Shown here piece after piece: positions 45,943-55,636 of a DNA stretch of 64,000 nt. This stretch comes from Synechococcus sp. CC9902 (GTDB lineage: Bacteria; Cyanobacteriota; Cyanobacteriia; PCC-6307; Cyanobiaceae), in the NCBI RefSeq assembly GCF_000012505.1, contig NC_007513.1, positions 1,116,001 through 1,180,000 of the forward strand, given 5' to 3'. Every line of letters begins with the position of its first letter. The stretch's first letter is position 1. Made by a program: the position numbers and the translations under genes. The notes beneath the pieces are model-generated. The model had not been told where the DNA came from. It saw only the letters and a list, made by a program, of their open reading frames with translations, and did no database searches.

Positions 45943-48270
45943 GTGACCCTGACCCCCAATCGTGTGGAGCCCACCGCAGAACAGTGCCTCAGCTTCGGGG
46001 ACTTTCCAGCAACGGCTCCAGCAGCAAACCCTGTTTTTTATCGGACTTACAGCCGACGAACCCCCAACGGACGGGAAAGCTGGAGCCAAGTTGGCTCCAG
46101 AAACCTCGATGGCCTTCAGAAGCTTGGCAATCTCACGGAGGCCGAGCTCACGTTGATGGCCCGCATGCAGGCCGAAAAGAAGGCCTTGCCTTCTGGTCGT
46201 TGGCTATGGATCGGCGGAACTCCGTGGATTGAAAAGCCCGAGAACTTTTCTGGCTCCTACAACTGCACCTCCACCAACCTTGTGGATTGGGAAGCCTTTG
46301 GTCTGATGATGGACCTGGCGATGATGGGTTGCGGCACTGGAGCAATCATCGAGCCGCGGCTGATTGATCAACTTCCGATCGTCCAGAACACGCTGAGCGT
46401 TGTTTCAGTGAGCGACATCGGCATTACTCCAGCCGAGTCTCGCCAAGACGCCTGCACGCACAGCATTAACGGCAATAAAGTCCAAATCAAGGTCGGTGAC
46501 ACTCGGCGGGGCTGGGTCGATAGTTATCAGCTTCTCCTCGAATTGAGCAGCGACCCCCAATTCAACGGCGGCACTGTTGAGATTACGGTTGATCTGAATG
46601 ATGTACGTCCCGTCGGCGAAACCCTGAAGGGCTTCGGTGGGATGGCCAATCCCGTCAAACTCAAGGATCTCTACGGGCGCGTCGCAAGACTTCTGAATAA
46701 AGCGATTGGACGGCGTCTGTCTTCAGTCGAGTGTTGTTTGCTGATCGATGAAGCCGCCGTCACGATTGTGGCGGGCAACATCCGCCGCAGCGCAGGAATG
46801 CGCCAGTTTGCCGCTGACGACCACGCTGCTGCATCAGCGAAGGACAATCTTTGGCAGCAGGATGGTGAGGGGAATTGGCGAATCGACCCCGAGCGGGATT
46901 CGCTTCGCATGGCAAACCACACCCGCGTTTACCACACTCGCCCAACTAAAGAGGTTGTTCACGCCGCCGTCACCAAGCAATTTATGTCTGGGGAAGGGGC
47001 TATTCAATTCGCCCCTGAAGCGATCGCACGCTCGAACGCCGATCTCCTCAAGACGCCTGAATTGCGTCAAGAATTTATCGAGATTTATTGCGATCAAGGC
47101 CGGGACGAAGCGGGCCGTTGGCTCTGCACGAACCACGGTGAAATGAGTGATGCTGAGCTCGATCATCGATTGAGTCGTTATGGACTCAATCCCTGTGGCG
47201 AAATTCTTGGGGCCGACTTCCACTGCAACCTTGCGGAAGTTCACCTCAATCAAATCGACCCCAGCGATGAAAAGGGTCAAGCGGATGCGTTCCGTGCCGG
47301 TGCTCTCTCCGTGGCGTGCTTGCTGAACCATCGCTTCGAAGTGGAGCGCTACCGCCAGAGCCGGGAGTGGGATCCCATCGTGGGAGTGAGCTTCACCGGG
47401 TTATTCGACTTCTTTGTGCATGCCTTCGGCACCGAATGGCTGAACTGGTGGGAAGCCGGCCGTCCGGATACCGATCAAGGGCTTGCTTTTAAATCCCAGG
47501 AAGCTGCTTATCTGGCTCGCTGGAAAGCCATCGTTAATGAAACCGTTTGGGAATACTGCGATCGCGAAGGTCTTCGCCGTCCTAATCGCTGCACAACTGT
47601 TCAGCCAGCTGGAACGAAAAGCCTGCTGACCGGTGCCGCACCTGGCTGGCACCCTCCCAAAGCACAGCGCTTCATTCGTCGGATCACGTTCAGAAAAGAT
47701 GATCCCGTCGCAATGGCCTGTATGGATTACGGCTACACCATCGTTCCTTCCCAATCCGACAAAGATGACGAGGGTCGTTTGCTCAACGATCCCTTTGACC
47801 CCCGTTGCACTGAATGGCTGGTTGAAATTCCAACTGAAGTGAGCTGGGCCAACCTCCCCGGTGCTGATGCCGTTGATATCAATGGCTTCTCAGCAATGGC
47901 GCAATTTGACTTCTACATGCAAGTTCAACGTCATTACACCGCTCACAACACCTCAGCCACGATCGAATTTCGTGAGAACGAAATTGAACCGATTTCTGAG
48001 GCACTCTTCAAAGCGATGAACAACGGAGAGGGGTACATCTCTGCTGCACTGCTGGCGCGTTTCGACGCCAACGCGACGTTCCCACGGCTTCCATTCGAAC
48101 CGATCGACGCTGAAACCTATGAAAAGCTTCAGTCTGAGGTTGTAGAACGGCGCGTGAGCAGCAACTTCTTTGACGCTTTACAGCGCTACGACCAAGGGGA
48201 ACTCACCGAGGCTGGCCCAGCCGGATGTGATTCAGATAAATGTCTGCTTCCACTGGCCAAACCGAACTAG
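45943..48270 (+). CDS. nrdJ: Adenosylcobalamin-dependent (class II) ribonucleoside-triphosphate reductase (775 aa)
   Basis: Makes deoxynucleotides using a B12 radical. The length fits the monomeric RTPR type. Active-site cysteines lie in SGSYNCTSTN (about residue 110) and in NPCGEILGADFHCNLAEV (about residue 420), and the C-terminal shuttle pair is CDSDKC. Class II enzymes are characteristic of marine picocyanobacteria. Start GTG 45943 is chosen; TTG 45925 would add six residues. No cobalamin riboswitch is visible upstream. Confidence 0.92.
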   Translation: MTLTPNRVEPTAEQCLSFGDFPATAPAANPVFYRTYSRRTPNGRESWSQVGSRNLDGLQKLGNLTEAELTLMARMQAEKKALPSGRWLWIGGTPWIEKPENFSGSYNCTSTNLVDWEAFGLMMDLAMMGCGTGAIIEPRLIDQLPIVQNTLSVVSVSDIGITPAESRQDACTHSINGNKVQIKVGDTRRGWVDSYQLLLELSSDPQFNGGTVEITVDLNDVRPVGETLKGFGGMANPVKLKDLYGRVARLLNKAIGRRLSSVECCLLIDEAAVTIVAGNIRRSAGMRQFAADDHAAASAKDNLWQQDGEGNWRIDPERDSLRMANHTRVYHTRPTKEVVHAAVTKQFMSGEGAIQFAPEAIARSNADLLKTPELRQEFIEIYCDQGRDEAGRWLCTNHGEMSDAELDHRLSRYGLNPCGEILGADFHCNLAEVHLNQIDPSDEKGQADAFRAGALSVACLLNHRFEVERYRQSREWDPIVGVSFTGLFDFFVHAFGTEWLNWWEAGRPDTDQGLAFKSQEAAYLARWKAIVNETVWEYCDREGLRRPNRCTTVQPAGTKSLLTGAAPGWHPPKAQRFIRRITFRKDDPVAMACMDYGYTIVPSQSDKDDEGRLLNDPFDPRCTEWLVEIPTEVSWANLPGADAVDINGFSAMAQFDFYMQVQRHYTAHNTSATIEFRENEIEPISEALFKAMNNGEGYISAALLARFDANATFPRLPFEPIDAETYEKLQSEVVERRVSSNFFDALQRYDQGELTEAGPAGCDSDKCLLPLAKPN

Positions 48271-48329
48271 CTGCCAAAGGGTGTCCGAATACAATGGTCG
48301 TGCAATGCCTTGTGTTGCACGACCCCTTT

Positions 48330-48416
48330 GGAGAGGTGGTCGAGTGGTTTATGGCTCTGGTCTTGAAAACCAGCGTGGGTGCAAGCCCACCGTCGGTTCG
48401 AATCCGACCCTCTCCG
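48330..48416 (+). tRNA. tRNA-Ser (UGA)
   Basis: The acceptor arms GGAGAGG and CCTCTCC pair fully. The anticodon loop CTTGAAA holds TGA. A long variable arm (GTGGGTGCAAGCCCAC) marks a class II tRNA, and the T-arm is CGGTTCGAATCCG. The discriminator is G and no CCA is encoded. It lies 59 bases after nrdJ. Confidence 0.95.
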
Positions 48417-48422
48417 CTTTTT

Positions 48423-48449
48423 AGCCCAGTCGATGACTGGGCTTTTTTT
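48423..48449 (+). terminator. Terminator after tRNA-Ser
   Basis: The arms AGCCCAGT and ACTGGGCT with a 5-base loop are followed by seven T residues, 6 bases after the tRNA. Confidence 0.9.
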
Positions 48450-48510
48450 ATGCCAGACAGGATTCTCAGGGCAGCTGCACTGCTTCAAATCGGAGCATGT
48501 TGTGGCCAGA

Positions 48511-48675
48511 ATGTGTCGATGCCACCCCGAGATACTCGCAACTTCCGTTGTGACTAATGCCATTGATGCTGTGTTAGCTGAGTTGGATGCTCGCTGCAGA
48601 CTGATCAGCCTTGCGGGGCTCGAAATGGATGGGTTCTTTTCAGAAGACTTCGATCAAGAATTGGTGGATCGCTGA
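48511..48675 (+). CDS. Small protein of unknown function (54 aa)
   Basis: Short acidic protein with a helical middle (SVVTNAIDAVLAELDARCRLISLAGLEMDGFF). ATG 48511 lies 60 bases after the tRNA terminator, and an upstream extension of the frame runs through the tRNA and is rejected. Followed at once by repeat copy A. Confidence 0.5.
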   Translation: MCRCHPEILATSVVTNAIDAVLAELDARCRLISLAGLEMDGFFSEDFDQELVDR

Positions 48676-48679
48676 GTGA

Positions 48680-48995
48680 TCGCGGCCCTGGTTTCATTCG
48701 ATGCACCGATTCGTCGAATGTGATCCAAAGCGGGGCGAGGGTTTGATCAAAGTTGGTTCAGTTCATCGATTCCAGGCGATGAACTTGATCCATCGCGATA
48801 TGTAGGAGTCTCTGCGGTGGATCAGTTGGAGGCCGTAGCCCCTACCTTCTCGGGGGCTACACCTCGCCGCGCAAGCGTGATCGTTGCAAGTACATAGGAG
48901 CTAAGCGACCTGAACTTGTCGGTTGGTCATTCATCCATTCGGGCGCCTGGTATCAAATGTCAAAAGAAGAGGGCAGTCCTGCATTAGCTGTATGA
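48680..48995 (+). repeat. Structured repeat family, copy A
   Basis: First of four imperfect copies in this region. The core has a perfect 9-bp stem, AGTTCATCG (48760-48768) with CGATGAACT (48777-48785). A second stem, GTAGCCCC (48835-48842) with GGGGCTAC (48853-48860), follows. Both stems recur with compensatory or wobble changes in copies B-D. Similarity to copy C continues downstream (AAAGAAGAGGG near 48962). The copy lies directly upstream of the small gene at 49015. Confidence 0.75.
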
Positions 48996-49014
48996 GATTA
49001 GAGAGGCAAACTCA

Positions 49015-49209
49015 ATGGATGCATCCAACAAGCTCCAACGCGTAGAACTACTGAATTACACAAAAGCTAGTGGTGAGGAGCTTGTTGGTCTCGCCGTTGA
49101 ATTAATAGAAGACGTTAATGGGGGTGTTCAGGTTCAAGTCCTGATGGATTCAAATGTTGTCAGTGGTGTGAATGTTGTTGCCTTGCAGCAAGGTGGCTGT
49201 TGCGAATAA
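49015..49209 (+). CDS. Small protein ending in a CC motif (64 aa)
   Basis: Short beta-rich looking protein: LNYTKASGEELVGLAVELIEDVNGGVQVQVLMDSNVVSG followed by the C-terminus QQGGCCE. No signal peptide. The adjacent terminal cysteines hint at metal binding or a link site, but the family is not recognised. It sits just after repeat copy A. Confidence 0.55.
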   Translation: MDASNKLQRVELLNYTKASGEELVGLAVELIEDVNGGVQVQVLMDSNVVSGVNVVALQQGGCCE

Positions 49210-49555
49210 TTAGCAAGGCCGCAAAGGGAGATCAAAATCAGCCATCACCCCTTCGGCGGACATCGCTTCCACCCATTGGGCACGGGCTGACGGCATCTTA
49301 TTTGCTATCCGCCAGACCTTGCTTAATGGAGGTTCCTCAGCCGACCGAGGGCATGCTGCAGCGCATGTAGATCAACAAGTAGGTGGTTCTTATTCGGCAT
49401 GACTCAACGATGGCAAGAGGAATAACTCGTAGACGATTAATGCCGCCCAGCGGCTCTTTTCGGGACACTGTTCTCAGCAGGGGATAACAAGATTCAGTCG
49501 CAACAGACAGACGTTCTATTGGAATCGCCAGAATGGTGAAACTACAAATAAAGAA
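49210..49555. other. Gap with possible remnant reading frame
   Basis: No convincing gene in these 346 bases. On the minus strand a 28-codon ORF (49210-49296) extends as an open frame upstream without a start codon, which could be a decayed gene. Confidence 0.35.
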
Positions 49556-49744
49556 ATGAGATTCGTAATTACCGCTCTGCTTTCACTAGTGGCACTCACT
49601 ATTGTTCTGCTGACTAGCACTAAGGACAACTACACAATCCATATCGGCTCAAGGACGCCCCCTGTAGAGGCTGGTTGTCGCCAGATCAGTCAGCAAAGAA
49701 CCGATGAAGGAAAAGCGCTTGGCATCTATTCCTGTCCTGCATAG
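49556..49744 (+). CDS. Small membrane-anchored or secreted protein (62 aa)
   Basis: An N-terminal hydrophobic segment (VITALLSLVALTIVLL, residues 4-19) is followed by a short hydrophilic domain with two cysteines (AGCRQ and YSCPA) that could form a disulfide. ATG start with an AAAGAAATG context. Unknown function. Confidence 0.5.
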   Translation: MRFVITALLSLVALTIVLLTSTKDNYTIHIGSRTPPVEAGCRQISQQRTDEGKALGIYSCPA

Positions 49745-50494
49745 CCAACTCTCTCGGTTGACTCTTCTTTTTGCTCAGGCCACAACGAAACTGGCGACAG
49801 GTACGACCAAGCGGCCCAGGTCGCTCCCTCAGCAGCAAAAGACGTTGTAGGCAGTTGGTTGGGGGTGCTGCACACGAGAACGATGGTTGAGCAGCTAACT
49901 CAAAATGCGTTGAAAGGAGACCGCTCCACAGCATCTAAGTTTTTCCACGTTCATCACGAGGCGAGCTGGCAAAGAGCAGCACTGGAGGGAGATGGCGCAA
50001 GCCGCCATCGCACCGGGCGGTGGCTGGAATGAGGTAGGAACCAAAAGCCTGGAAGCGGGATTTTTCAACCACTCCTTACCCCTGTTGGGCCAGAAGGTGC
50101 TGCCTTTTGTATCTGGGAAGTCCGCTAGAGAGTATTGCGGAGGAATTTAAAGAGTCCATCGACGGTCCTAACGGCATGAACTTCGGGCTGGGAGCCTGGA
50201 TGAAACCGGCAAGGAGATCAACCATGAACTGGCAAGGAATACGCCATACGCCAGAAAGTTATGAAGCGACTTAAGAGCTTGATGCATGGCTTTCGAATTC
50301 GTTCCTCATCCATAAGAGTTAGAGGCTCAAGCCTGAGTGCAACTGCACAAGCCTGTTCGACTTTCCCTCAACAACCAGTGGACTTATTCTGACCTCCATC
50401 AGCTCAATTAATACAGCTCTTTGACGTTCTTTAAGACCAAAAATGAGCCAACATTAAAGGCAATCGGCATCCTTTGATTCAGAAGGAGAAGAAA
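49745..50494. other. Non-coding or decayed stretch
   Basis: These 750 bases hold no supported ORF, RNA or long repeat. Short open stretches in several frames, interrupted by stops, look like decayed coding DNA. Confidence 0.4.
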
Positions 50495-50770
50495 TTACAT
50501 CATCTCACCATGTGAAAATACTACATCCATTGAATCAATCTTTGTGCTTACTATTTTGACTGCCTCAATGTCATCACTTTCATCGGCTAATTCAATTTGA
50601 TGAATTTCTTTTAAAGTATTTAAATATGTAAGACAATGCTGACGTATCTCCATAAGTTCTGCGAAACAATTTTTTGCAGCAGCATTAGCTCGCAAGTCAG
50701 AATCAGGCTTGATTACAGACTCAGTGAATAGTTCAAGGGCCTGCTGATAAGAGCCGGAAGAAGAAGACAT
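50495..50770 (-). CDS. Small helical protein of unknown function (91 aa)
   Basis: Predominantly helical acidic protein (YQQALELFTESVIKPDSDLRANAAAKNCFAELMEI) with a TPR-like feel in the first half. No signal peptide. AT-rich relative to the core genes. Stands alone. Confidence 0.55.
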   Translation of the reverse strand: MSSSSGSYQQALELFTESVIKPDSDLRANAAAKNCFAELMEIRQHCLTYLNTLKEIHQIELADESDDIEAVKIVSTKIDSMDVVFSHGEMM

Positions 50771-51058
50771 CTTTGTTAACTTTTAGCCAATGTAAATCGA
50801 GGACTAGACCAATTGCAGTATAAACGCTTACATATATTGACCAGAATAAATACTTATATTTGTGATTTGATGTTGGTTCTGGACGTTATTTATTTAAGAA
50901 CAAACATCACCAGTCTTACTTCTCACCACATCTCCTATTTGGGAGATACCGCACTCTACCTTCTCCCGCTGGGATAATTAAGGCTATTTTAATCAGAACT
51001 CTTGAATACTGGTCTTTCCATGAAAGATGACTAGGATATTTGAAGGCTGTCCTTTGTC

Positions 51059-51331
51059 ATGAGTAACCTCTTCACAGTGGTAATGGACGATGGCGATGAA
51101 GCCAATGAACTAGAATCGTTCCCTACCCATAATGAGGCATTAGCTTATCTAAAGCAGCAGGTTAATGATTGGAACCATACAGATAAATGGGATAAAACAA
51201 AAAAAAGACTGGCAATGGTTATTGCTGAAAATGGCTTAGAGTTAGAAGTAATCGAAGAAACACCATCATCTGATTACGAATATCATGAGACTTGGAATTC
51301 AATACACGGCTGGAGTGGTGACAGTCAATAG
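51059..51331 (+). CDS. Small acidic protein of unknown function (90 aa)
   Basis: Alternates strand and helix: LFTVVMDDGDEANELESFPTHNEALAYLKQQV, then a KKRLAMVIAENGLELEVIEE strand pair and a Trp/Tyr-rich acidic tail. The composition of a folded protein supports a real gene. Not recognised. Confidence 0.55.
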   Translation: MSNLFTVVMDDGDEANELESFPTHNEALAYLKQQVNDWNHTDKWDKTKKRLAMVIAENGLELEVIEETPSSDYEYHETWNSIHGWSGDSQ

Positions 51332-51485
51332 GTAAATCTCAATTAAACCGATGTCGATGTTGAAAATATTAAGAGCCAGCGGATACTACTTTATCTATGA
51401 CATCGATTGCAGAACAAAAACACCATCAAGCGTCGTAGTGTTATTTATTTTGCCTCAGGTATTGTATTGAAGCGTGATCAGTCAC

Positions 51486-51510
51486 TAAAAACCCCGCCTT
51501 GCGACGGGGT
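51486..51510 (-). terminator. Terminator of the cupin gene
   Basis: Read on the minus strand, ACCCCG and CGGGGT arms with an 8-base loop run into five T residues, about 55 bases after the cupin stop. Confidence 0.7.
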
Positions 51511-51563
51511 GAACTGTGTGAGGTTAGGGAATTAATATTAAAAAATTTTACCCAGCGCCGTCT

Positions 51564-52010
51564 CTATGGCTTTGCCATAACCACAGTTTCAAGACCTTCA
51601 GCGGCTACCGCATTAACAAGCATTACTGCATATCCCTCCCCCACATTCTCCATGGTGTGAGCGGGGGTTTGGTCAGCGATAACAAATGATTCACCAGACA
51701 GGAAGACATATTTTTTGCCACCTGGCTTCACTAGAGCAATTTTTCCTTGCTGGATGTATCCAGTCAGAGGCATTGGATGGGTATGGAGCGGGAATCCAGT
51801 GCCAGGCGGGAATGAAACACGATAGAGACGTAATTCAGAAACACCTTCTGGATAAGAAAAAGAATCACCCTCAAGTGTTTTAGATGTGCCCATAATCTGC
51901 TTAACTTCAACGGCAGGACCATCTGCGGTCGTTCCATGCCCATCAGCCATTGCAGCTGGAACTGCAATAATCAATCCAGAAATGGAAGCAATTAACGCCT
52001 TGAAAAACAT
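51564..52010 (-). CDS. Exported cupin-domain protein (148 aa)
   Basis: A signal peptide (MFFKALIASISGLIIAVPAAMA) is followed by a single cupin barrel. Motif 1 is GTGFPLHTHPMPLTGYIQQG (two His, Gln in place of the usual Glu) and motif 2 is VIADQTPAHTMENVG (His). Probably a periplasmic metal-binding protein of unknown role. The start at 52010 is chosen because the signal peptide begins there. Confidence 0.8.
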   Translation of the reverse strand: MFFKALIASISGLIIAVPAAMADGHGTTADGPAVEVKQIMGTSKTLEGDSFSYPEGVSELRLYRVSFPPGTGFPLHTHPMPLTGYIQQGKIALVKPGGKKYVFLSGESFVIADQTPAHTMENVGEGYAVMLVNAVAAEGLETVVMAKP

Positions 52011-52399
52011 TAAAAAAGAAAAGGTTGATCCCATTAACCATAGCTATTTAAATCAGTACAGAGAAATATGTTACGTGCCGTATGTATCAAACGACACTTA
52101 ATTCCATGCACCAGCTGGCGTGCTTGCCTTCTTTGATTCGCCATGACTCAGCTCGGTCACTGGACAGAAAGGAAGAACTAGTAATGGGGTCTCGTCAAAG
52201 AAGAACAGCATCTGCTCTGTTAATAGCTGTTTTGCCAATACAACCCCGCCCAGAGAACGGTTGATGTTGATTTAGTGCAAGATCTGGCGACCTGTCGAAT
52301 GTCTTCCTGCTTTCTGTGACTGATACCTTGTGATCGGTACTAAGTGATGAAGGCAGTGGTTGCATTCGATGCTGCGCCCTGTTGCTTGTGATGCGAGAT

Positions 52400-52550
52400 A
52401 AGTCGGAGCGTTCATCAGAGTTCATTCAGTTCATCGATTCCAGACGATGAATAGGGTCTATTGGTGCGTGGCTGCCTCAATAGATTTCGCATTGGAGGTT
52501 ATGGCTCTTACTCCAGAGGGGGAGTCATAGCTTTCGTGTGAGTCAAGGAA
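52400..52550 (+). repeat. Structured repeat family, copy B
   Basis: Stem 1 AGTTCATCG (52428-52436) pairs with CGATGAAT (52445-52452), 8 of 9 positions including one G-U. Stem 2 TATGGCTC (52500-52507) pairs with GAGTCATA (52522-52529), all eight positions with one G-U. Shares 23 identical bases with copy D around stem 1. Lies head-to-tail with copy C. Confidence 0.7.
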
Positions 52551-52555
52551 TGCTG

Positions 52556-52870
52556 AATGATCGAGGCTTTGGTTTCATCCGATGCACCAATCCGTCGGTT
52601 CTGATGTGGGGAGGGTCCGGGACCTGATCAGAGTTGATGTAGTTCATCGTTCTCCGCTGCGATGGATAGATTCCACCGAGGTTTGGAGATCACCGGTGGA
52701 TTCGCAACAGGGTCGTGTGCCTCCCCTGCACGGGAGGCCGCACCTTGCTTCACAGGAATGAACGCATCCCGTGCATCAGCTTCATGAAGCCTGGCGTTGT
52801 CAGTTGATCACGCAGCGCCAGTTGATGAAAGAAGAGGGAAAATCTAATTTCAGTTGTATAACTATTGCCA
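52556..52870 (+). repeat. Structured repeat family, copy C
   Basis: Stem 1 AGTTCATCG (52641-52649) pairs with CGATGGAT (52660-52667) using two G-U pairs. Stem 2 joins the segments around 52715-52725 and 52732-52743 (core CCTCCC/GGGAGG closed by GTG/CAC). The opening block GGTTTCATCCGATGCACC matches copy A. Downstream, AAAGAAGAGGG and a TTGTATAACT element match the end of copy A. Confidence 0.75.
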
Positions 52871-53013
52871 TGAAACTAAAGCAACAAATATTGGTAACCG
52901 AGTATGGCACTGAGGCGTGAGCCACATCAGATGGATCAACACAAAGGCTCCCATTTCAACAAGGGCGCCATTTCTCCATGAAATCCGCCATATTGCGCGT
53001 CGTTCCAATTGAA

Positions 53014-53226
53014 ATGATGAGCGAACTCAACTTAGAGCCAAAACCACTCCTTCTCAAGATATGGAAAATCATCACTTGGCGTTGGAGATTGCAAATTGCC
53101 ATTAATGCTCCTTTTGGGATTTTGTGGCTTGCAGACAAAACGAACCCTGCTGTTCATGAGTTCGATATTGCTCTGCTTACAGCAATACATGCGGAATGGA
53201 TGGCACCAATGATTGGCATTAGCTAG
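53014..53226 (+). CDS. Small membrane-associated protein (70 aa)
   Basis: Basic-aromatic stretch LLLKIWKIITWRWRLQIAINAPFGILWLA, then ALLTAIHAEWMAPMIGIS; one moderately hydrophobic helix around residues 20-38. ATG 53014 or 53017. The first gene after repeat copy C. Family not recognised. Confidence 0.5.
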   Translation: MMSELNLEPKPLLLKIWKIITWRWRLQIAINAPFGILWLADKTNPAVHEFDIALLTAIHAEWMAPMIGIS

Positions 53227-53716
53227 GGACGACTCTGACTGATCAGGATTGCGAGAGTAGTGTTCAATTTCGACGTCGACGAAACGTTCCAAACTTGGAA
53301 CGGCGAATCGTCACACTCTTAAGTTGAATATATCTCGTAGTAACAAGGGTGATGAACGCTATTTCAACTGTATAAAGCCAAGTTGGAATTTCCATTTCTA
53401 GGTTCTATCAAGGGCTGGAGGCTGGCTTGCCTTAATTGCTACAGGAAAGAGCTTCAGATGAAACCGATTCAACAAACGCTCAGTGCCGACCACTGCTGAA
53501 GTTTGGCAAATTTATCTATTTCCCTACTCAGTTCGCAGGCTCATGAATAAATCCATGCCTTAGTGAAGCATCAAATGTGGTAAGAGTGAAAATTTTAGTT
53601 ATCTACTCGTATCTCGTTCTAATGCCAGTTAATCAGCGGCTATGGGTAAATATGTCACCCGTACAACAAACGTTTGTCACTCAGATCCCCACGCGAACAG
53701 TCAATATTGAGCAGTC
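53227..53716. other. Gap with an 18-base palindrome
   Basis: No supported gene. At 53285-53302 CGTTCCAA and TTGGAACG flank a 2-base spacer, a perfect dyad that could be a protein-binding site. An ORF at 53577-53801 with GTG start lacks protein-like features and is rejected. Confidence 0.35.
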
Positions 53717-53902
53717 GTCCTTGGACGGGATCGACAGGTCAAACAAACATCCATCTCTGTTGGTGAATGCAGGGGTGGATGGACCTTTCATGGATTTGTA
53801 GCAATCGTACTCACAATTCACACTGACCACCTATTACAAGTTATAAGTAGTTATCCCGTCCAAGGACACGTGGAAAGCCCCAGCATTGACTGGGGCTTTC
53901 TG
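53717..53902 (+). ncRNA. Candidate structured RNA with terminator
   Basis: A perfect 15-bp helix forms between 53717-53731 (GTCCTTGGACGGGAT) and 53853-53867, enclosing 121 bases. Inside, CATCCATC (53748-53755) pairs with GGTGGATG (53774-53781) with one G-U. A terminator hairpin follows 5 bases after the closing helix. The layout suggests a roughly 190-nt independent transcript; its identity is unknown to me. Confidence 0.5.
53873..53902 (+). terminator. Terminator hairpin after the RNA candidate
   Basis: The arms AAAGCCCCAG and CTGGGGCTTT with a 6-base loop are followed by a short T/C tract. Symmetric enough to work in both directions. Confidence 0.65.
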
Positions 53903-54194
53903 CTGGCAATGTCTGAGCAAGATTTCTGACATTCATTTTAAATACTGAACCAAGTCGTCCGTCATGAGGAAGAGAGAGGCAGTTAAAGATCGTTAACTGC
54001 CATCCTCTTGCGAAGTTGTCGGTGCATATTGGCCCGCACCTGGCAGTTAGGCCAATCGACTACTTCCACTTCAGTATGTGTACTCGACATGGAGCTTCTA
54101 GTAACTTCAGCTGCAAATCGCAGTATCAAAACTGTGTTGATGCCATGAACATGGACAGGGCTGATCACTTTATTCGTTTCCAAGCGGAGTCACA

Positions 54195-54400
54195 TCGGAT
54201 GCATCGATCGGTCAGTTCTGATCCAAAGAAGATCGTTGGACTAATCAGAGTTCATTCAGTTCATCGTTTGGCCAATGCGATGAGTTAGGGGGCCATCGGC
54301 AACGGTGGCTTTCGCAACAGGGCCGCAGCTCCCCAAACGGCTTCGGCGGGGCTGCTCCTTGCTGCACAACCTGAACGCTGCTAGTCGATCAAATCAGTGG
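54195..54400 (+). repeat. Structured repeat family, copy D
   Basis: Stem 1 AGTTCATCG (54258-54266) pairs with CGATGAGTT (54278-54286) at all nine positions with two G-U pairs. Stem 2 GCAGCTCC (54325-54332) pairs with GGGGCTGC (54348-54355). The block TTCGCAACAGGGCCG before stem 2 is shared with copy C. Followed about 185 bases later by the DUF4278 gene. Confidence 0.75.
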
Positions 54401-54585
54401 AGGAATGCCAAACCCCAACGGTTGATCTCGCTGAGTTAAGTCTGTAACGACATGAACATCAGAAGGGTTGACGGATGCGCTATCAAAGGTCTGTAGCAAC
54501 AGCTACAAACGTTCACCTTGCATCCGCAAGGCGCAGTCAAGCCAGGCCACGGAACGGGGACCTGGATTTCTTCGAGGAACTCGAC

Positions 54586-54756
54586 ATGACAGCTCTTCTC
54601 TACAGAGGTCAAACCTACGGCGCCAGCCAGCCTGCTTCACCCAAGAAGTGCGTTGAGCTCACCTACCGCCACGAGCACTACAACACATGCCGTGATCATG
54701 TCTCTCGAGACATGCATCCAACACTTCAGTATCGCGGTGTTGCCTACACCAAGTAA
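54586..54756 (+). CDS. DUF4278 family protein (56 aa)
   Basis: Starts MTALLYRGQTYGAS and ends LQYRGVAYTK: the YRGxxY motif at both ends is the DUF4278 signature seen in many small cyanobacterial proteins. ATG 54586 is chosen because the family begins at this Met. Function unknown. A terminator follows. Confidence 0.75.
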   Translation: MTALLYRGQTYGASQPASPKKCVELTYRHEHYNTCRDHVSRDMHPTLQYRGVAYTK

Positions 54757-54776
54757 TACATTTCTCATGATCTGAG

Positions 54777-54803
54777 AAGCCCTGCCTCGGTGGGGCTTTT
54801 TTT
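54777..54803 (+). terminator. Terminator after the DUF4278 gene
   Basis: AAGCCC and GGGCTT arms with a 10-base loop followed by seven T residues, 20 bases after the stop. Confidence 0.8.
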
Positions 54804-54895
54804 ATGGCCGAAATCAGCCTCTCTCCAAAAGTAAATAGGAACATCGACGAGTCGAGACTGATGCAGCGAGTGTGGCTGCGTCGCAAATTATCTAC

Positions 54896-55156
54896 TTACT
54901 TAGATATCATCATATAAAGATTGGGAAATTTTGACTTATTCTTCTTTGCATACTTTTTAAATTCATAGAAGCAGGACTGACCCGTGTATCCAATGGAATT
55001 TTTCATTGAATCAAGAACAATCTCCCACGACTCACCGTTATTCAGCATCTCCTCGAAGTCTCCCGAATAAAGATACGGATCACATGCCAGTACTGGTGAT
55101 AGCGACAGAATTTGCAATGTGATGATCGATGAGGCCGCAATTATGGATCTGACCAT
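54896..55156 (-). CDS. Small secreted protein (86 aa)
   Basis: A signal peptide (MVRSIIAASSIITLQILSLSPVLA) precedes a short mature part with two cysteines (ACDPYLY and QSCFYEF) and a Lys-rich end. The start at 55156 gives a clean signal peptide; the frame is open to 55255. Unknown family. Confidence 0.6.
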   Translation of the reverse strand: MVRSIIAASSIITLQILSLSPVLACDPYLYSGDFEEMLNNGESWEIVLDSMKNSIGYTGQSCFYEFKKYAKKNKSKFPNLYMMISK

Positions 55157-55490
55157 CACTAAAGCTCTGAATCTATTGATCACGACGATCCTAGCAATGA
55201 ATGCTTCATAACTACTCGCAAACTTAGAGTATGAAATATTCCCAGGAAAATACATCTTTCAGCCATCTCGCTAACAACCATAGGTACGATTCAATGCTGG
55301 CTCATTGATCTCATATTTAATCTATTAGCAGATAATTTAATTATAAAGGCCATGGGATAATTTTTATGCGAATGGATATTTTGAAATCAAATCAGTTCGC
55401 ATCGATAAGGAATCAACGGCAGCTCATGATTGGCACAGTGCCACTTATTCCGAGTTTAGGATTCATTCAGGCTATCCACTGCTAAAAATA

Positions 55491-55563
55491 GGGGGTTGTT
55501 CTCCTCACACAAGAGATCAACACCTCACACACCCAATGCCACTCGTTGAGTGGCATTTTTTAT
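55491..55563 (+). ncRNA. yfr1: Yfr1-like small regulatory RNA
   Basis: Layout of cyanobacterial Yfr1: stem-loop 1 (GTTG/CAAC plus TCTC/GAGA, 55495-55521) with loop CTCACACAA, a single-stranded segment ACCTCACACACCC (55522-55534), then a terminator stem-loop. The Yfr1 core ACUCCUCACAC is matched at 10 of 11 positions in the linker (ACACCTCACAC, 55520-55530). A second match, CTCCTCACAC, sits at 55501-55510 in stem-loop 1. Yfr1 is an Hfq-independent trans-acting repressor of outer-membrane protein mRNAs in Prochlorococcus. Exact ends are inferred. Confidence 0.7.
55535..55562 (+). terminator. Terminator stem-loop of the Yfr1-like RNA
   Basis: Perfect AATGCCACTC/GAGTGGCATT hairpin with a 3-base loop followed by T residues; also helix 2 of the Yfr1-like RNA. 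Confidence 0.9.
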
Positions 55564-55636
55564 GGGTTTGGAACCCGGCTGCTAACCGAGCAGTCCCTTT
55601 CGTTCGGACGAAGGTGACCGAACCACTCTCGAGTGA

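What the first reader, a model, noticed from the sequence alone, without database searches (positions are those of the whole stretch)
48680..54400. Four-copy repeat family conserving two RNA stems
Copies at 48680, 52400, 52556 and 54195, all on the plus strand, share sequence blocks (for example TTCAGTTCATCG, and a TTCGCAACAGGG block in C and D). Stem 1 pairs AGTTCATCG with a CGATGA-type arm; the 3' arm varies (CGATGAACT, CGATGAAT, CGATGGAT, CGATGAGTT) yet 8 or 9 positions still pair, using G-U in B, C and D. Stem 2 differs in sequence in every copy but still pairs. That pattern suggests selection on RNA structure: a small-RNA family, mobile non-coding element or regulatory leader. Three copies precede small genes (49015, 53014, 54586). 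I know of no description.
Basis: partly seen in the sequence, partly recalled or inferred. Interest (0 to 1): 0.8.

Follow-up and report, generated by a model that had tools for sequence, protein, structure and literature searches.

The report
Clade-specific three-hairpin RNA repeat family
A group of open-ocean cyanobacteria carries a previously uncatalogued family of small folded RNAs, repeated up to nine times per genome in changeable stretches of DNA, whose hairpins appear to be preserved by natural selection even while their letters and neighbouring genes change.

Summary
The four copies are real and belong to a larger family. I found 27 copies in four closely related marine Synechococcus-type genomes (9, 8, 9 and 1). 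I found no convincing copy in the other 30 of 34 genus genomes, elsewhere in samples of 400 family and 388 class genomes (20 family genomes had weak matches), or in two viral pattern scans. Rfam does not match the window copies.

Stems 2 and 3 covary strongly; stem 1 is nearly fixed. G-U cells outnumber A-C cells 110 to 7, so the plus strand folds. Between sister genomes the hairpin halves differ by 1.8-5.5%, most nearby non-coding stretches by 16-19%.

The copies are not evidently coding, nor an evident leader: neighbours differ, and copy D's downstream gene has its own glutamine-II riboswitch. A sister genome has an A/B hybrid copy and lacks the 3.67 kb between A and B, so copies also recombine.

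Best reading: a clade-restricted multicopy small-RNA family, probably trans-acting. Transcription and targets are untested.

The parts
48674..48872 (+). Copy A: stem 1 about 48760-48785, stem 2 about 48786-48824, stem 3 about 48829-48865
   Evidence: R2 158.5 bits; fold z -4.31 for 48740-48872
52342..52540 (+). Copy B: stem 1 about 52429-52452, stem 2 about 52454-52487, stem 3 in 52488-52540
   Evidence: R2 159.1 bits; fold z -3.32; part from stem 1 on 5.5% diverged from the sister genome
52555..52753 (+). Copy C, in tandem with B: stem 1 about 52642-52667, stem 2 about 52669-52703, stem 3 about 52708-52747
   Evidence: R2 170.8 bits; fold z -2.62; hairpin half 1.8% diverged from the sister genome
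54172..54367 (+). Copy D: stem 1 about 54260-54284, stem 2 about 54288-54313, stem 3 about 54314-54365
   Evidence: R2 157.2 bits; fold z -3.21; hairpin half 4.5% diverged
48783..52451 (.). About 3.67 kb between copies A and B that is absent from sister genome G002, where one A/B hybrid copy stands instead
   Evidence: blastn collinearity ends at 48783 and resumes at 52340, both sides ending in G002 1588836-1588947; hybrid alignment
52754..52880 (+). Tail of copy C: probably the decayed start of a DUF3104 gene (copy A's tail, from about 48873, is similar)
   Evidence: Local alignment to the tail of the G002 RNA-DUF3104 unit exceeds all 200 shuffles for A, C, bB and cA; DUF3104 by Pfam on the G002 gene; C tail 15.7% diverged
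49015..49209 (+). 64-aa ORF in the A-B segment, with a 75%-identical homologue between two copies in genome G013
   Evidence: no Pfam match
54507..54566 (+). Glutamine-II riboswitch, between copy D and the DUF4278 gene at 54586
   Evidence: Rfam RF01704, 62.7 bits; DUF4278

Best explanation
The copies are members of a multicopy, clade-restricted structured non-coding RNA family read from the plus strand. Shown: a conserved 5' half without supported structure, then a 3' half of three hairpins, two of them kept by compensatory change, with low divergence at each of the three copies that could be compared between sister genomes; dispersal over several variable loci, some copies in tandem; and a hybrid copy, so the repeats recombine with each other. 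Inferred: each copy is a stand-alone small RNA gene acting in trans. The near-invariant stem 1 and the conserved unpaired 5' sequence would be the parts that contact a protein or target RNAs, and stems 2 and 3 a scaffold whose shape, not letters, matters. The 5' half could instead hold the promoter, but I saw no consensus promoter there. Copies spread by recombination along with small island genes, not by a transposase of their own.
For: 27 distinct copies in 4 genomes at 31 bits or more. On 21 of the 26 copies known at that time: 93.3% of cells paired versus 85.9 +/- 0.8 in shuffles and 30.3-46.2% in slid controls; 16 pairs with double changes versus 5.3 +/- 1.6; 0 of 500 shuffles as high on any of the five measures. 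RNAalifold column-shuffle z on 18 non-redundant rows: stem 1 -8.8, stem 2 -22.2, stem 3 -13.9, 5' half -0.4. A helix scan without a given structure ranks stems 2 and 3 first and second by covariation; stem 1 is not in its top 15. 110 G-U cells versus 7 A-C cells fix the strand. Divergence from G002 of hairpin halves is 1.8% (C), 4.5% (D) and 5.5% (B), against 16.5-18.8% in three intergenic stretches, 3.3% in the riboswitch and 2.9-5.8% in three likely genes. The tails after C and D drift at 15.7% and 17.3%, and contexts differ (psaE, DUF3104, other small ORFs), which favours action independent of neighbours.
Against: No transcript data. No sigma-70-like promoter or U-tract terminator lies at any of the four window copies (3 promoter-like sites in the region versus 10.5 expected). 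Trans action and targets are untested. Copy F ends about 20 nt before psaE in the same orientation, and G002 has an intact RNA-DUF3104 unit, so some copies could act in cis. Divergence comes from two genomes and about 110 sites per copy; two further non-coding blocks (53700-53905, 5.8%; 53906-54160, 6.7%) are about as slow as the copies, and one ORF (54896-55255) is at 15.3%. Copies are related, so cell counts overstate independent events. The best reading frame of the 5' half has fewer stops than the other two.
Confidence: 0.55

Rival explanations
1. A cis-acting 5' leader, originally of DUF3104 genes, that regulates whatever gene lies downstream.
For: G002 has an RNA copy followed by an intact DUF3104 gene. 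Tails of A, C, bB (the orthologue of C) and cA match that unit's tail above all 200 shuffles (4 of 26 tails tested). Copy F ends about 20 nt before psaE. A, C and D precede small ORFs.
Against: 22 of 26 tails show no such match (D and dA come nearest). Of 30 DUF3104 loci searched with R2 (15 of them from the four genomes with the family), 3 hold a copy, and 2 of those 3 are DUF3104 fragments. D's downstream gene has its own glutamine-II riboswitch. The RNA is conserved while the tails drift. B is followed by C, not by a gene.
Confidence: 0.2
2. A recombination site of a gene-cassette system: crossovers occur in the conserved stem 1 inverted repeat, shuffling small genes between islands, as attC sites do in integrons.
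For: The G002 hybrid copy matches A up to stem 1 and B after it, and the 3.67 kb between them is missing. A's 3' half resembles bE's, and B's stem 3 region resembles cG's, while their 5' halves do not; 5' and 3' distances correlate 0.40 over 210 pairs. One locus holds about 355 bp, 1.34 kb and 19 kb in three genomes, with 0, 1 and 5 good copies. The 49015 gene recurs between copies at that other locus in G013.
Against: Stem 1 is also the most nearly identical stretch, so ordinary homologous recombination explains the hybrid. Stem 1 spacing varies. The tyrosine recombinase of one island has matches (many distant) in 25 of 34 genus genomes at E up to 1e-10, 22 of them without the repeat, and none in G002, which has 8 copies. 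Strand-specific G-U pairing points to RNA. GTT is on the outer, not the inner, side of the arms, unlike attC as I recall it.
Confidence: 0.12
3. A non-autonomous mobile repeat (MITE-like, with RNA-like hairpins as a by-product of its folding DNA).
For: Dispersed and tandem copies in non-orthologous loci. In bD and cA, and less well in A, the start of the copy (GCTGARTGATYGA type) is complementary to a stretch in the tail (seen by eye), like short terminal inverted repeats or a closing helix; this was not tested.
Against: No target duplications were seen by eye in the flanks printed. The three copies comparable between sister genomes are held at 1.8-5.5% divergence in their hairpin halves while the tails after C and D drift at about 16-17%, which a dead insert would not show. 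The G-U over A-C bias is strand specific.
Confidence: 0.1

Closest known systems
Cyanobacterial Yfr small RNAs (recalled, and in titles or abstracts listed) and the Cyano-1/Cyano-2 motifs (RF01701, RF01702)
   Same: Non-coding RNAs of marine picocyanobacteria; Cyano-1 and Cyano-2 are listed as marine cyanobacterial motifs in PMC2864571 (passages seen).
   Different: No Rfam family matched copies A-D at the gathering score or at E up to 5 (copies in other genomes were not scanned). The present family was found in one small clade and has a 5' half without supported structure.
Glutamine-II (Downstream-peptide) riboswitch, RF01704
   Same: Structured RNA before small genes in the same organisms; one begins 140 nt after copy D.
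   Different: A separate element, 60 positions long; the repeats do not match its model.
Integron attC sites (recalled)
   Same: Repeated inverted-repeat elements between small genes, with exchange of flanks at a conserved hairpin.
   Different: The island recombinase tested does not track the copies, arm polarity differs (recalled), and covariation is of RNA type.
Dispersed intergenic repeats with RNA-like folds (ERIC, bcr1; recalled, no call)
   Same: 100-250 nt, intergenic, multicopy, hairpin-rich.
   Different: Here covariation and low divergence at fixed loci are measured; no target duplications were seen.

Membership tests
Any Rfam 15 family | Covariance-model score at or near gathering threshold | tested here: not met
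   No match over copies A-D in the whole-window scan nor at E up to 5 in 48000-55000; copies outside the window not scanned
Structured non-coding RNA | Compensatory changes in the predicted helices beyond shuffles | tested here: met
Structured non-coding RNA | Strand-specific G-U pairing | tested here: met
   110 G-U versus 7 A-C cells
Trans-acting small RNA | Independent transcript with own promoter and end | tested here: inconclusive
   No consensus promoter or U-tract terminator at the window copies; no RNA data available
Cis-acting leader | Constant class of downstream gene | tested here: not met
Integron cassette array | Associated integron integrase | tested here: not met
   The recombinase of the 1404 kb island gives no match at E up to 1e-10 in G002, which has 8 copies; the three other PF00589 places in G000 lie over 20 kb from any copy
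Integron cassette array | Exchange of flanks at a fixed point in the repeat | tested here: inconclusive
   One clear case and some suggestive ones
Transposon or MITE | Precise ends with target-site duplication | tested here: inconclusive
   No duplication seen by eye in flanks; a possible inverted pair of ends in bD, cA and A, untested; no clean empty site found
Decayed protein-coding repeat | Third-position bias and open frame across copies | tested here: not met
   Entropy 0.84/0.95/0.97 by position; stop in 13 of 21 copies in the best frame

The most novel reading that the evidence does not exclude
The element has two linked roles: a selected, transcribed three-hairpin RNA, and a recombination site, its near-invariant stem 1 being the crossover point by which a clade of marine cyanobacteria shuffles small-gene cassettes among hypervariable islands without an integron.
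Probability: 0.1. Interest if true: 0.85.

Novelty: new member of a known kind. Interest (0 to 1): 0.52.

Why it matters
Marine Synechococcus are major primary producers, and their islands are where ecotypes differ (general knowledge). A conserved RNA family with up to nine copies per genome in one clade, and none found in the related genomes searched, is a candidate ecotype-specific regulator. It is also a marker for how island genes are exchanged. It can be tested directly in clade IV cultures.

Tried and rejected
Coding origin: not supported by codon-position entropy and stops. Alternative pairing of stem 1 arms with stem 2 arms (a switch, suggested by their similar letters): 87.1% of cells can pair, far above slid controls, but there is no double change and no excess over shuffles, so it is not supported. 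Structure in the 5' half: none. Viral source: two exact patterns, 0 hits each in viral contigs; the 49015 protein gave no relative there either. Island recombinase as the repeat's recombinase: not supported by its distribution. DUF3104 as an obligate partner: not supported. Weak R2 hits (15.1-21.5 bits) in 20 further family genomes were mostly short or gapped matches; I treated them as chance and did not follow them up, so a diverged wider family is not excluded. The searches also scored only 64 or 6 candidates per genome, and the pattern scans of genome contigs and viral contigs may leave out near records.

Print: searches for the repeat, small RNAs or islands of these strains (two searches listed 15 of 22 and 12 of 339 papers) and for DUF3104 listed no paper that, from title and start of abstract, describes this family. 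Passages only were seen of PMC2441476 and PMC2864571; supplements were not seen. The library holds open-licence papers only.

Rows dropped: alignment A2 uses 21 of the 26 copies then known; five diverged or truncated ones (L018, L032, L036, L037, L039) were left out before counting. drop three further near-identical orthologues. One search covered 6.5 kb of the 20 kb in L088. In one search, 32 matches include one copy seen in two overlapping loci and four of 10.5-22.4 bits that I do not count.
Full report
The window is G000:C1:1116001-1180000 of a single-contig genome of 2,234,828 bases. The closest genome with copies, G002, has 2,285,034 bases and is 90.7% and 89.2% identical over the two blocks that flank the A-B segment. 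These figures agree with Synechococcus CC9902 (2.23 Mb) and BL107 (2.28 Mb), clade IV, ANI 91.3%, as given in passages of PMC2441476. The two other genomes with copies have contigs of the same number and length as records titled Synechococcus sp. AG-683-C23 and AG-679-D13. The first two names are inference.

One search returns the four copies as one direct-repeat family. A covariance model from the four (R1) found five more places in the same genome at E up to 10 and copies in 4 of 34 genomes of the genus at E up to 0.01. Model R2, built from 21 of the 26 copies then known, gives 27 distinct copies at 31 bits or more in the loci fetched: 9 in G000, 8 in G002, 9 in G013 and 1 in G015. In a sample of 400 family genomes the strong matches are in those four genomes only. 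Twenty others have single matches of 15.1-21.5 bits, mostly short or gapped, which I take for chance without proof. In a sample of 388 class genomes at E up to 1e-6 only G000 and G002 match. Two exact patterns found nothing in viral contigs. Rfam 15 has no match to copies A-D; copies outside the window were not scanned.

Anatomy. The 5' half, about 85 nt, is conserved in sequence but does not fold better than shuffles, alone or as an alignment. The 3' half holds three hairpins. Stem 1 is almost fixed in sequence (99.3% of cells paired, 2 of 7 pairs with any double change). Stem 2 (11 pairs, 8 with double changes) and stem 3 (8 pairs, 6 with double changes) carry the covariation. Overall 93.3% of cells pair against 85.9 +/- 0.8 in shuffles and 30.3-46.2% when partners are slid; 16 pairs change on both sides against 5.3 +/- 1.6; no shuffle of 500 reaches any of the five observed values. 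A search for helices with no structure supplied puts stems 2 and 3 at ranks one and two by covariation; stem 1 is not in the 15 listed. G-U cells number 110 and A-C cells 7, so the plus strand is the one that folds. The copies are related, so these counts exceed the number of independent events.

Selection at fixed loci. Between the window and G002 the hairpin halves differ by 1.8% (C), 4.5% (D) and 5.5% (B); the 5' halves of C and D by 6.9% and 8.3%. The glutamine-II riboswitch differs by 3.3%, and three likely genes by 2.9-5.8%; a further ORF (54896-55255) by 15.3%. Three intergenic stretches differ by 16.5-18.8%, and the tails after C and D by 15.7% and 17.3%. Two other non-coding blocks are also slow: 53700-53905 (5.8%) and 53906-54160 (6.7%); see noticed in passing. 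The RNA thus looks held by selection at each of these three places, while the sequence straight after C and D drifts. This rests on two genomes and about 110 sites per copy.

Neighbours. In G002 copy bD is followed by an intact DUF3104 gene. Tails of A, C, bB and cA match that tail above all 200 shuffles; the other 22 of 26 tails do not, D and dA coming nearest. Fragments of DUF3104 also lie between copies F and G and about 1 kb downstream of cF and dA. But of 30 DUF3104 loci searched with R2, unfiltered (15 of them from the four genomes with the family), three hold a copy, and two of these three are fragments. Copy F ends about 20 nt before psaE, copy D stands before a glutamine-II riboswitch and its DUF4278 gene, and B before C. 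The family is thus often near small island genes but has no constant partner, which speaks against a leader as its main role.

Recombination. Window and G002 are collinear to 48783 and again from 52340. The single G002 copy there matches A up to stem 1 and B after it, so about 3.67 kb is missing in G002 or gained here. At the locus of copy E the three genomes have about 355 bp (G002), 1.34 kb (G000) and 19 kb (G013) between the same flanks, with 0, 1 and 5 good copies. The homologue of the 49015 gene lies between two copies at that locus in G013. Distances between copies in the 5' and 3' halves correlate 0.40 over 210 pairs, and several copies have different nearest relatives for the two halves. 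Homologous recombination between repeats explains this. A dedicated site-specific system is not excluded, but the tyrosine recombinase of one island does not track the repeat, and spacing between the stem 1 arms varies.

Conclusion. What is shown is a new structured RNA family, folding on the plus strand, covarying in two stems, little diverged at fixed loci, found in one small clade as far as searched, and recombining between copies. What is inferred is that it is transcribed as a stand-alone small RNA acting in trans. No sigma-70-like promoter or U-tract terminator was found at the window copies and no RNA data could be examined.

Noticed in passing
window 53700-53905: A second candidate structured element: a long inverted repeat followed by a GC-rich hairpin, fold z about -7 on both strands, 5.8% diverged from G002, with matches (many only to its first 25-75 bases) in 18 of 34 genus genomes. 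Not in Rfam at gathering score.
   Followed up: partly
window 53950-54160: Block upstream of copy D with low divergence from G002 (one 100-nt stretch, 54042-54141, at 1%), also shared with the upstream of copy cE of G013; nature unknown.
   Followed up: no
window 48420-55600: About 7 kb downstream of tRNA-Ser with few convincing long genes, unlike its flanks.
   Followed up: partly
L070 and L071 (G013 C13:11685-30651): About 19-kb island with five copies and what look like an isiA/CP43-type chlorophyll-binding protein gene and a phycobilisome-linker-like gene (recognised by eye from the translation; no family search).
   Followed up: no
L093 about 1600-1640 (G000 about 720.1 kb): A palindromic AGTAC-GTACT motif like a cyanobacterial LexA box (recalled consensus) upstream of an intact DUF3104 gene.
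   Followed up: no
L087 5069-5290: psaE preceded by copy F, which ends about 20 nt before it, with a second copy (G) divergent about 117 nt upstream of F.
   Followed up: partly
L076 3150-3415 (copy bD), also cA and window copy A: Start of the copy (GCTGARTGATYGA type) is complementary to a stretch in the tail, as terminal inverted repeats or a closing helix would be; seen by eye.
   Followed up: no
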